This document shows positions 1,705 to 4,626 of a DNA stretch of 64,000 nucleotides, one piece after another. The translations under genes and the position numbers were made by a program. The stretch covers positions 3,782,001 through 3,846,000 of the forward strand of contig NZ_CP139249.1 of assembly GCF_034064985.1 (NCBI RefSeq), given 5' to 3'. Numbering within the stretch: the first letter of the stretch is position 1; every line of letters begins with the position of its first letter. The notes under the pieces were generated by a model that saw nothing but the letters and a program-made list of their open reading frames with translations, did no database searches and was not told the DNA's origin. Origin of the DNA: Acinetobacter pittii. GTDB lineage: Bacteria; Pseudomonadota; Gammaproteobacteria; Pseudomonadales; Moraxellaceae.

Positions 1705-3367
1705 CTACTTTTCCTAATAATATTTTAATTAATCCACGTGTTGAGGCATCTAATGATGAAAAATCATTTTGACCCCCATTTAAAATAGGTAATAGTTGAT
1801 CAGCAATCTGTTTGCCTTTTTCGACGCCCCATTGATCAAACGGGTTAATATTCCAAATGACAGACTGCACAAAAACTTTATGCTCATATAAAGCAATTAA
1901 CATTCCCAAACTATATGGATTCAACTCTTTCAATAATAGGGTTGAACTCGGTTGGTTACCTTCATATTGTTTGTAAATCGGCAGTTTTTCTAATTCAGTT
2001 GAGTCTAAAGCTTCATTACCAAAGGCCAATAATCTTGATTGGGCCAAACAATTCGATAATGCAAGATGATGCTGCTCGACTAAAGCCTCTGCATTTTCAA
2101 CATAGGTAAAATGGTCAGCGTTATAGCGTTGGACTGGCGCAATAAAGTCACAGCTTACTGCTTGAGTTCCCTGGTGTAATAACTGATAGAAGGCATGTTG
2201 AGCATTTGGTCCAACTTCTCCCCATACAATTGGGCATGTATCGAGTTCGACTTTTTGACCGTCACGTTGTACCGATTTACCATTAGATTCCATTTCAAGT
2301 TGCTGCAAATAAGCAGCAAAATACTTTAATCGACCATCATAAGGTAATACTGCATGAGTTTGAATATTTAAAAAATTATTGTTCCAAACGCCTAATAAGC
2401 CCATTAAAACAGGAATATTTTGCTCATAACTTGTATTTTGAAAATGTTCATCTACTGCATGAGCACCAGCTAAGAGTTGCTGAAAACCTTCAACCCCGAT
2501 ACTCAACGCAATAGGTAAACCAATGCATGACCACAATGAGTAACGGCCACCTACCCAGTCCCAAAGCAGTAATTGATTTTCTGGAGCAATCCCCCATTCA
2601 GTCATTTTATCTGCTTTTGTTGATACTCCAACAAAATGACTTTTTAAAACTCGGGCATGTGTTCCCAAAGTTTTTTCAAGCCACTGACGTACGGTTTGGG
2701 CATTTGATAAAGTATCAATCGTTCCAAAAGATTTTGAAGAAATAATAAATAGTGTTGTTTCTGGACGAAGTTGGTGGAGCAACTCCGACAACTGACTACC
2801 ATCCATAGTCGATACAAAGTGAACATTTAAAGGTTTAGCCGTTTTCACTTTAAAATCTGACAACGCATGGGTGACCATTTGTGGCCCTAAATCAGAACCA
2901 CCCACACCAATGTTCACAACATCTTGAATCACTTCACCGGTTGCCCCGCGATATTGACCAGCATGTATCTTTTCCACTAAGGCATACATACGTTGTAACT
3001 GGCTATGGACTTGAGCCGTTAACTCTGGAAACTTCGAATAGTCAACTGGCAAGCGTAGTGCCCAATGCATTGCTGCACGTTGCTCTGTACAATTTACTTT
3101 GTCTTGTGAAAAAAGACGTTCAATCCATTGATTTAATTGTTTGGTTTTCGCAAGAGCAGTCAATTGTTCCAAAATGTCTTTAGTAACACGATGCTTACTA
3201 AAATCAAAAACTAATGGATCAAATTTTATAGAATATTGTTGAAAGCGATCCGGTTCTGAAGCGAACAATTCTTTTATATGTAGTTTTGAATTTTTCTCAC
3301 CCATCGCCTGTAATTTTAGTAAAGGTGAAACCAACTCTTTAGGAAATTTCTCGATAGATTTACTCAT
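1697..3367 (-). CDS. gpi: Glucose-6-phosphate isomerase
   Basis: The 556-residue protein is a full-length phosphoglucose isomerase, interconverting glucose-6-P and fructose-6-P. Visible signatures are GVGGSDLGP in the first half, DWVGGRYSLWS in the middle and FDQWGVEKGK near the C-terminus, the family's two diagnostic patterns plus the sugar-phosphate loop. It starts inside the ATGA overlap with the ugd stop and overlaps gne1 at its end, so it is embedded in the capsule precursor operon. It supplies hexose phosphates for UDP-glucose and amino-sugar precursors. Confidence 0.97.
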   Translation of the reverse strand: MSKSIEKFPKELVSPLLKLQAMGEKNSKLHIKELFASEPDRFQQYSIKFDPLVFDFSKHRVTKDILEQLTALAKTKQLNQWIERLFSQDKVNCTEQRAAMHWALRLPVDYSKFPELTAQVHSQLQRMYALVEKIHAGQYRGATGEVIQDVVNIGVGGSDLGPQMVTHALSDFKVKTAKPLNVHFVSTMDGSQLSELLHQLRPETTLFIISSKSFGTIDTLSNAQTVRQWLEKTLGTHARVLKSHFVGVSTKADKMTEWGIAPENQLLLWDWVGGRYSLWSCIGLPIALSIGVEGFQQLLAGAHAVDEHFQNTSYEQNIPVLMGLLGVWNNNFLNIQTHAVLPYDGRLKYFAAYLQQLEMESNGKSVQRDGQKVELDTCPIVWGEVGPNAQHAFYQLLHQGTQAVSCDFIAPVQRYNADHFTYVENAEALVEQHHLALSNCLAQSRLLAFGNEALDSTELEKLPIYKQYEGNQPSSTLLLKELNPYSLGMLIALYEHKVFVQSVIWNINPFDQWGVEKGKQIADQLLPILNGGQNDFSSLDASTRGLIKILLGKVDG

Positions 3368-4626
3368 AAACGACCTACTCCTTCATAAGCAAAGCCCTTA
3401 GCCTTTACATATGCTGGGTCATAAATATTACGCCCATCCAAAATTAAAGGATGCTGCATCATCTGTTGTAATTGCTTAAAGTCTGGACTCCAGTATTGTT
3501 TCCATGCGGTAACTAAACATAAGGCGTGTGCGTCTCGAGCAGCCTCATATTGATCAGTACACAGTACTAAATCCTTACGGTCACCATATGTAGCGGCAAT
3601 TTCATCTAATGCTTGAGGATCATGCAAACGTACTGTTACACCTTGCGCCCATAATGCAGCTAATAAAATATGAATTGGGGAGTTATGTATGCTTGAGGTA
3701 TTTTCTTTGAAGGATGCACCCCAAATAGCCACGGTTTTACCATTCAAATTACAATGATAATAATTCCACAGCTTACGGAATAAAATTTCTTTTTGTTGTT
3801 CGTTAATTGCCCATACCTGCTCTAAAAGACGACTTTTCGCCCCAGTTCCAGAAACAGTACTCGAAAGGGTTAAAATATCATGCGAAAAATTTTCACCGCC
3901 AAAACCAACTCCAGCGGACAAATAAGCCGCACCAATACGTGTATCGGCCGCAATACCATGCTTCACATTAGCGATATCAATACCGAGTTTCTCTGCCACC
4001 ATAGCTAAGTCATTCATATAACTAATGCGGGTCGCTAACATGCCAGAAATACTAAGTTTCGTAAACTCAGCATCCAAGATCGGCATAAATAAGTATTGAT
4101 AACTAAAACGGAAAAATGGGCGTAACAGCTCCTGCATTGTATCCCGTGCATGATTGGACTCAACACCAACAATGACATGTTTTACATTCAATACGCTGTT
4201 AATGGCATTTCCTTCTTGAATTACATCAGGAAAATAGACCCACTCGTCTTTTGGTAAATATTGTTTTAACTGATCAGTTCCATGTAAGCCAAATGTAGAA
4301 CCATTTACCATTAATCTAGGATGAACAATAGGACGTTGACTTAACTTCTCAACCGTATTTAAAGCAAGCTGAATTTGTGTGGGACTAAAACAAAATAAAT
4401 AAACTTCAACATCAAGAGGAATAGCAGAAAAAGGACTTTCTTGTAGAAAACCCGATTTTCTTTGTTTATTTAAATAGTTATTAACTTCTTGATCTTGATA
4501 GGAAAGTACAGAAATATTTTCTTCGCAGGTGACACTTGTGCACCAATAAATCTGATTGCCATATTCAGCTAGTAATGCTGCCATTACACCAGCGTGTAAG
4601 GTGGTTCCAAACACTGCGATTTTCAT
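3364..4626 (-). CDS. ugd: UDP-glucose dehydrogenase homologue with altered active site
   Basis: The 420-residue protein follows the UDP-glucose/GDP-mannose dehydrogenase fold from end to end and sits in the usual ugd position between galU and gpi. Key residues differ from the family. The motif that normally reads GFGGSCFPKD is GFGGENFSHD at residues 241-250, so the nucleophilic Cys is Asn246. The conserved AAN asparagine aligns with Ser194, and the PEF glutamate aligns with an Asp. The N-terminal dinucleotide loop is GTTLHAG rather than GxGxxG, while Lys190 and Asp250 are kept. The reading frame is intact and well preserved, so it is not a decayed gene. The name is by position and homology; the usual four-electron oxidation to UDP-glucuronate through a cysteine adduct is doubtful. 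Confidence 0.8.
   Translation of the reverse strand: MKIAVFGTTLHAGVMAALLAEYGNQIYWCTSVTCEENISVLSYQDQEVNNYLNKQRKSGFLQESPFSAIPLDVEVYLFCFSPTQIQLALNTVEKLSQRPIVHPRLMVNGSTFGLHGTDQLKQYLPKDEWVYFPDVIQEGNAINSVLNVKHVIVGVESNHARDTMQELLRPFFRFSYQYLFMPILDAEFTKLSISGMLATRISYMNDLAMVAEKLGIDIANVKHGIAADTRIGAAYLSAGVGFGGENFSHDILTLSSTVSGTGAKSRLLEQVWAINEQQKEILFRKLWNYYHCNLNGKTVAIWGASFKENTSSIHNSPIHILLAALWAQGVTVRLHDPQALDEIAATYGDRKDLVLCTDQYEAARDAHALCLVTAWKQYWSPDFKQLQQMMQHPLILDGRNIYDPAYVKAKGFAYEGVGRL

What the first reader, a model, noticed from the sequence alone, without database searches (positions are those of the whole stretch)
3364..4626. K-locus ugd encodes a UDP-glucose dehydrogenase homologue without the catalytic cysteine
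Seen directly: the canonical GFGGSCFPKD motif reads GFGGENFSHD (residues 241-250), so Cys becomes Asn246. The conserved active-site Asn aligns with Ser194, the PEF glutamate with Asp, and the cofactor loop is GTTLHAG. From family knowledge, the cysteine forms the covalent intermediate for the second oxidation. The frame is intact and the rest of the fold is preserved, which suggests a maintained but different activity: two-electron oxidation, a sugar-binding regulatory role, or an unusual chemistry. The gna enzyme in the same locus keeps every active-site residue, making the contrast internal to one operon.
Basis: partly seen in the sequence, partly recalled or inferred. Interest (0 to 1): 0.72.

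Follow-up and report, generated by a model that had tools for sequence, protein, structure and literature searches.

The report
Dead UDP-glucose dehydrogenase paralogue family
The capsule-locus gene annotated as UDP-glucose dehydrogenase encodes a protein that keeps that enzyme's predicted shape and sugar-nucleotide pocket but has lost both its catalytic cysteine and its NAD site, and it belongs to an old, conserved protein family tied to the genes that supply UDP-glucose, so the usual annotation is probably wrong and its real job is open.

The parts
3364..4626 (-). ugd (here called ugd*): 420-aa Cys-less UDP-glucose dehydrogenase paralogue
4588..4608 (-). former NAD loop, residues 7-13 GTTLHAG in place of GxGYVGL
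   Evidence: second glycine kept in 5 of 124 and third in 6 of 124 Cys-less proteins, each in 98 of 99 canonical
4045..4059 (-). Lys190 (kept, canonical Lys204) to Ser194 (canonical Asn208)
3937..3939 (-). Arg230, matches the cross-subunit Arg that holds glucose of UDP-glucose; kept in 124 of 124
   Evidence: role from PMC3184952 passages (Arg260 in the human enzyme)
3877..3906 (-). GFGGENFSHD, residues 241-250; Asn246 (3889-3891) replaces the catalytic Cys
3766..3795 (-). QKEILFRKLW, residues 278-287, with clade-specific E280, R284, W287: candidate new interaction surface
   Evidence: E280 120, R284 121, W287 124 of 124 Cys-less; each under 30% in 99 canonical
3427..3438 (-). DGRN, residues 397-400, C-domain motif kept (D and N 124 of 124, R 116); its UDP-binding role is recalled
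1697..3367 (-). gpi, glucose-6-phosphate isomerase; start overlaps the ugd* stop by 4 nt (3364-3367)
4744..5619 (-). galU, UTP-glucose-1-phosphate uridylyltransferase, 117 nt before ugd*
685..1704 (-). gne1/galE-type epimerase, next gene after gpi (named by position and family knowledge)
20750..22024 (-). gna, intact nucleotide-sugar dehydrogenase used as internal contrast

Best explanation
Ugd* is not a UDP-glucose 6-dehydrogenase. It is an old pseudo-dehydrogenase that split once from canonical (TuaD-type) enzymes, lost NAD binding and the covalent catalyst, and kept the UDP-sugar-binding half. I propose that it binds UDP-glucose (or a close UDP-sugar) and, by physical contact through its newly conserved patch (E280, R284, W287), acts on the enzymes made beside it, Gpi and/or GalU, to set how much fructose-6-phosphate is committed to UDP-glucose for surface polysaccharide. 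Shown by sequence: loss of Cys and NAD motifs, retention of UDP-pocket residues, one clade, purifying selection, gene linkage and co-occurrence with gpi. Inferred: UDP-sugar binding, contact with Gpi/GalU, direction of regulation.
Against: No binding, interaction or enzyme data. Lys190 (K 113, R 11 of 124), Asp250 (92 of 124) and Glu138 (106 of 124) are largely kept, which a pure scaffold would not need. The gpi cut-off (E 1e-140) was set after seeing the table; counting any gpi match, 14 of the 24 genomes scored as lacking ugd* have one (8 of them with a canonical ugd). Co-loss can come from deletion of one operon. In Halomonadaceae loci ugd* sits beside galU with no gpi on the fetched stretch, so a Gpi-only role would not be universal. 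G160 has a related gpi (52%) but no ugd*. A ugd deletion makes a KL34 A. baumannii strain phage-tolerant (PMC13340115 passages), which could also mean a catalytic role or a polar effect on gpi; the word 'complemented' does not occur in its main text.
Confidence: 0.55

Rival explanations
1. A different enzyme: the UDP-sugar pocket now carries out an NAD-independent reaction, or uses another cofactor, on UDP-glucose or a related sugar, using Lys190 and Asp250.
For: Lys190 is K in 113 and R in 11 of 124; Asp250 is D 92, E 16 of 124; Glu138 is E in 106 of 124. Selection is strong, and a ugd deletion has a phenotype (PMC13340115 passages).
Against: The Cys position is N, S, G, H, T, A or Y, the Asn208 position S, N, M, I or T, and Asp250 is N, Y, T or S in some proteins, so no new catalytic set is conserved over the clade. 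The N-domain diverges fastest (mean identity 0.215 against 0.479 for the central domain in 16 representatives).
Confidence: 0.2
2. Still a UDP-glucose dehydrogenase by an unconventional route, as annotated.
For: NCBIfam subfamily NDP-sugDHase is above its cut-off (195.4 against 189.8 bits); the fold is intact; database and K-locus annotation say so.
Against: Cys, Asn208, Tyr10 and most NAD contacts lost; N-domain Pfam below cut-off (20 against 27 bits); TuaD model 205.7 against 700 bits; K loci for glucuronic acid carry a further ugd gene (PMC9676051); some genomes carry a canonical copy close by.
Confidence: 0.06
3. A scaffold or oligomerisation partner without ligand sensing, for example holding Gpi and GalU together or serving as a substrate of the Wzc tyrosine kinase.
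For: Newly conserved E280/R284/W287; overlapping genes. Canonical Ugd of E. coli is a tyrosine-kinase substrate (title and start of abstract of PMC2516531 seen in the listings).
Against: A pure scaffold need not keep Arg230, Lys307 and DGRN D/N of the UDP pocket at 97-100%.
Confidence: 0.12
4. The reading frame matters mainly as a translational lead-in to gpi, with little protein function.
For: Overlap with gpi in 22 of 29 ugd*-gpi pairs.
Against: In many genomes ugd* is downstream of gpi, or beside galU only; amino-acid selection is strong and 19 alignment columns are invariant across 86 sequences, 6 of them canonical.
Confidence: 0.05

Closest known systems
UDP-glucose 6-dehydrogenase, TuaD/bacterial UGDH type (3gg2, 2y0c BceC)
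   Same: Three-domain fold, central and UDP-binding domains over Pfam cut-offs, UDP-pocket residues; the clade lies beside these in the tree
   Different: No catalytic Cys, NAD motifs lost, N-domain below Pfam cut-off, clade-specific E280/R284/W287, linked to gpi/galU
Ugd2-Ugd5 of A. baumannii K loci (PMC9676051, PMC11619341 passages)
   Same: Same name and locus type; assigned the same substrate
   Different: Assigned to D-glucuronic acid synthesis in 24 of 237 K loci, whereas ugd is in all of them; I did not read Ugd2-Ugd5 sequences by name, so their motifs are untested here
UDP-sugar sensing regulators such as UgtP, OpgH and GlmR, and the GalU paralogue GalF (recalled, from no call)
   Same: Proposed way of working: enzyme-like protein reading a UDP-sugar level
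   Different: Different parent proteins (recalled); no sensing shown here

Membership tests
UDP-glucose 6-dehydrogenase (EC 1.1.1.22) | Catalytic cysteine (Cys260 in S. pyogenes numbering) | tested here: not met
   Asn246; 360 of 360 listed homologues lack it; role from PMC4794789 passages
UDP-glucose 6-dehydrogenase (EC 1.1.1.22) | GxGxxG NAD motif with beta-2 acid; Thr83 and Lys263 contacts | tested here: not met
   T9, A12, T30, S81, H249; PF03721 20 bits against cut-off 27; roles of GxGxxG, Thr83, Lys263 from PMC4794789 passages, of the beta-2 acid recalled
UDP-glucose 6-dehydrogenase (EC 1.1.1.22) | Asn208, Glu141 and Tyr10 | tested here: not met
   Ser194, Asp134, Leu10
UDP-glucose 6-dehydrogenase (EC 1.1.1.22) | Lys204, Asp264, Thr118 | tested here: met
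   Lys190, Asp250, Thr111
UDP-glucose 6-dehydrogenase (EC 1.1.1.22) | UDP-sugar pocket: Arg244 from the partner subunit, Lys320, DGRN motif | tested here: met
   Arg230, Lys307, DGRN 397-400
UDP-glucose 6-dehydrogenase (EC 1.1.1.22) | Oxidises UDP-glucose to UDP-glucuronate with NAD+ | not testable with these tools
   needs an assay
UDP-glucose/GDP-mannose dehydrogenase superfamily | PF00984 and PF03720 over cut-off; NCBIfam TIGR03026 over cut-off; fold | tested here: met
UDP-glucose/GDP-mannose dehydrogenase superfamily | NAD-binding domain PF03721 over cut-off | tested here: not met
   20 bits against 27
TuaD equivalog NF047673 | Curated cut-off 700 bits | tested here: not met
   205.7 bits
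UDP-sugar sensor/regulator | Ligand binding and effect on a partner | not testable with these tools
   only pocket conservation and gene linkage were tested

The most novel reading that the evidence does not exclude
Many gammaproteobacteria (Acinetobacter, Moraxella, probably Psychrobacter, Halomonas, Alcanivorax) carry a dedicated UDP-glucose sensor made from a dead UDP-glucose dehydrogenase. It is made together with Gpi and/or GalU and adjusts the flow of fructose-6-phosphate into UDP-glucose, so it sets capsule and lipooligosaccharide output. In Acinetobacter it has been annotated as the glucuronic-acid enzyme in every capsule locus. That these hosts live mainly by gluconeogenesis, which would give such a valve a purpose, is recalled knowledge.
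Probability: 0.3. Interest if true: 0.85.

Novelty: new variant of a known kind. Interest (0 to 1): 0.7.

Why it matters
The gene called ugd is listed for every described A. baumannii K locus with the predicted product UDP-glucuronic acid (PMC9676051, PMC3628348 passages). If it cannot make it, sugar predictions from locus content, metabolic models and readings of ugd mutants (phage resistance) rest on a wrong reaction. It also gives a clear case of an enzyme that lost cofactor and catalyst in one lineage yet stayed under strong selection in several gammaproteobacterial families, with a named, testable partner set (Gpi, GalU).

Tried and rejected
Local mutation or sequencing error: rejected, the change is genus- and clade-wide. 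Compensating cysteine nearby: none conserved. Asn246 as a new conserved catalyst: rejected across the clade, though N is nearly fixed in Acinetobacter (47 of 49). A second intact ugd in this genome: none found; PF00984 finds this protein and Gna only, PF03721 finds Gna over cut-off plus one weak sub-cut-off hit. Decaying pseudogene: rejected by dN/dS and newly conserved positions. The first structure model, from 20 rows, was weaker (pLDDT 82.9, pTM 0.57) and was replaced by the 86-row model. Full-text searches of the open-access library, whose listings showed no paper calling this protein catalytically dead: (0 papers). Kasimova et al. 2018 (Ugd2) was seen only as a reference, not read. The K34 structure was not found, so I cannot say whether the KL34 deletion strain makes glucuronic acid. 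Discordant genomes in the gpi table: G160 (gpi, no ugd*), G213 (gpi, no ugd*, 59% complete), G243 (ugd*, gpi match partial, 63% complete), and G082 (ugd*, neighbouring stretch reads N). G184 is undecided: it holds a canonical ugd and, at a contig edge, a 98-residue match to the Cys-less profile. Rows dropped before counts: identical proteins (49 of 50 Acinetobacter kept; 50 of 68 new Cys-less kept), long, short or near-duplicate rows, and all but 30 drawn at random from 91 new canonical proteins. In one search the 223 proteins were split into groups by the Cys itself, so the Cys column there is no test; 49 of the 124 Cys-less rows are the Acinetobacter set, so the sample leans to that genus.

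Full report
WHAT IS THERE. The gene is on the minus strand at 4626..3364, 420 aa. It follows galU (117 nt gap) and its stop overlaps the start of gpi by 4 nt; a gne1/galE-type gene comes next. Pfam finds the central (85.1 bits, cut-off 25.4) and UDP-binding (91.5, cut-off 30) domains, but the NAD domain stays below cut-off (20 against 27). Gna in the same locus scores 116.1 for the NAD domain and keeps GGHC. The genome has two proteins with the family's central domain: this one and Gna. Named homologues at 97-99% identity are from A. pittii, A. lactucae, A. calcoaceticus and the calcoaceticus/baumannii complex, so the host is inferred to belong there.

NOT A LOCAL CHANGE. In the genus 146 of 149 genomes hold a strong match (E 4.4e-103 or better), two a weak one, one (65% complete) none. 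All 50 Acinetobacter loci read lack the Cys; their 49 distinct proteins have N 47, S 1, H 1 there. All 360 homologues listed by three database searches (best 120 of each, the queries included; unlisted ones were not seen) lack it: N 120; T 66, S 39, A 15; S 103, G 8, T 5, A 2, N 2. It also occurs outside the family: Halomonas, Vreelandella, Salinicola, Billgrantia, Litchfieldella, Alcanivorax, Motiliproteus, and metagenome-assembled Piscirickettsiaceae, Methylococcaceae and others (18 of 80 named loci hold a Cys-less copy, 62 only canonical ones), and further unnamed families of the order and class.

ONE CLADE. A careful tree of 57 rows puts 44 Cys-less proteins on one side of a branch with support 100/99. 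A quick tree of 111 rows puts 68 Cys-less proteins on one side of a branch with SH-aLRT 100, beside 38 canonical ones; long rows there are less sure. Some genomes carry both: a canonical copy lies within a few kb of the Cys-less one in L053, L054, L055, L131, L135 and L141.

WHAT WAS LOST AND KEPT. I compared 124 Cys-less with 99 canonical proteins. The groups were split by the Cys, so that column is no test; its content in the Cys-less group is N 67, S 32, G 10, H 8, T 5, A 1, Y 1. The second and third glycines of GxGxxG are kept in 5 and 6 of 124 against 98 of 99 each. The beta-2 acid, Thr83, Lys263, Arg327 and Tyr10 equivalents are kept in about 2-6% against 98-99 of 99. By contrast Arg244 (cross-subunit contact to the glucose; Arg260 in the human enzyme, PMC3184952 passages) is kept in 124 of 124, Lys320 in 120, and D and N of DGRN in 124. 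Of 131 columns invariant (97% or more) in canonical proteins, those kept in at least 90% of Cys-less proteins are 2 of 38 in the N-domain, 3 of 16 in the linker, 20 of 44 in the central domain and 16 of 29 in the C-domain; four columns have no residue in this protein. Eight positions are newly conserved in the Cys-less clade (R200, Y235, L236, F242, E280, R284, W287, Q328). F242 and W287 are complete in the 124, but searches show Cys-less proteins outside that set with Tyr at 242. PMC4794789 (passages) names Gly7, 9 and 12, Thr83, Ser117, Thr118, Pro140, Glu141, Glu201, Lys204, Asn208, Asn219, Gly257, Gly258, Cys260, Asp264, Asn287 and Lys320 as conserved or invariant over 229 enzymes. By my mapping this protein keeps 12 and has lost Gly9, Gly12, Thr83, Glu141, Asn208 and Cys260. 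The roles of the beta-2 acid, Arg327 and DGRN are recalled, not taken from a call.

GENE LINKAGE. In Acinetobacter and genus g10 the order is galU-ugd*-gpi; in the other Moraxellaceae genera with ugd* mostly galU-gpi-ugd*; in Halomonadaceae loci galU-ugd* with no gpi on the fetched stretch; in Alcanivorax galU-ugd*-gpi; in several other families gpi-ugd*. In 128 distinct Cys-less genes there are 29 ugd*-gpi pairs (22 overlap), 43 gpi-ugd* pairs (25 overlap, 21 by exactly 4 nt) and 79 galU-ugd* pairs (62 within 30 nt) (starts were taken as the start codon nearest the homologous start). Control: among the 80 named loci, galU or gpi is found on the fetched stretch of 16 of 18 Cys-less genes but 7 of 62 canonical ones; galU 15 against 7, gpi 10 against 0 (the reference galU and gpi are from this window, so distant ones may be missed, and 4 of the 18 are Acinetobacter). 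Some canonical ugd genes of Moraxellaceae do lie beside a distant gpi (38-40% identity; L070-L073).

PRESENCE WITH GPI. In 199 Moraxellaceae genomes ugd* is present in 175. For part of these the motif was read; the rest were assigned by profile score (E 1.2e-132 or better, against 1.9e-107 at best in the nine genomes where only a canonical gene was found and read). Five genomes with lower scores (G162, G228, G235, G244, G276) and G243 were read and are Cys-less. A gpi of this type (E 1e-140 or better; a cut-off I set after seeing the list) goes with it: both 173, neither 21, ugd* only 2, gpi only 2, and G184 undecided. Fisher p with G184 counted as neither is 7e-25. Counting any gpi match instead, 174 of 175 genomes with ugd* and 14 of 24 without have one (p 9e-10), so the link is to this gpi type rather than to gpi as such. 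The genomes are related, so neither p is a true probability. Acinetobacter genomes without ugd* (G041, G042, G288) have no gpi match. Loss of one operon would also give this pattern.

LITERATURE (passages, unless said). All described A. baumannii K loci include ugd, annotated as making UDP-D-GlcA; D-GlcA is assigned to ugd2-ugd5 in 24 of 237 K loci (PMC9676051: passages, one whole section). KL71/KL74 make glucuronic-acid capsules and carry ugd4 (PMC11619341). In one phage-resistance study the same insertion element hit gpi (five isolates), pgm (one) and ugd (one) (PMC10904470). In a KL34 strain a ugd frameshift was found in a phage-resistant mutant, and a constructed deletion cut killing from about 60% to about 2% (PMC13340115). 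These phenotypes place ugd with capsule and UDP-glucose supply but do not exclude polar effects on gpi.

MECHANISM. The least forced reading is a UDP-sugar-binding pseudo-dehydrogenase that acts with Gpi/GalU. UDP-pocket retention, a newly conserved helix patch (E280, R284, W287) and close coupling with gpi point to ligand-dependent partner control. Loss of dehydrogenase function I hold at about 0.9; the partner/regulator role at about 0.55; a new NAD-independent enzyme at 0.2 is the main rival. Asn246 is nearly fixed within Acinetobacter but not beyond it, so it is unlikely to be a new catalyst for the whole clade. All steps after the sequence level are inference.

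Noticed in passing
L033-L038 (six Acinetobacter genomes: G097, G031, G144, G131, G014, G143): A very divergent Ugd* (42-46% identity, GFGG[GS][NS][LF]TRD) with equally divergent galU (54-59%) and gpi (58-60%): the whole module looks replaced as a block.
   Followed up: partly
G041, G042, G288 (Acinetobacter genomes): No strong ugd* match, no gpi match and, where tested (G288), no galU match: natural lack of the UDP-glucose supply module; their surface polysaccharide would be worth a look.
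   Followed up: no
L084, L154, L277-L280: A separate E. coli-type Ugd with GYGGYCLPKD occurs in some Acinetobacter, other Moraxellaceae and Alcanivorax genomes, a genuine candidate for UDP-glucuronate.
   Followed up: no
G159, G173, G183, G191 (genus g12): Moraxellaceae with a different gpi (42-45% identity in the three measured) and no ugd*.
   Followed up: partly
L270, L271, L276: Divergent Cys-less copies with GYGG rather than GFGG, so the Phe at 242 is not universal in the clade.
   Followed up: partly
window 12032-19540: Set of genes that look like nonulosonic acid synthesis (NeuB-, NeuC- and CMP-sugar synthetase-like by eye); K type not assigned.
   Followed up: no
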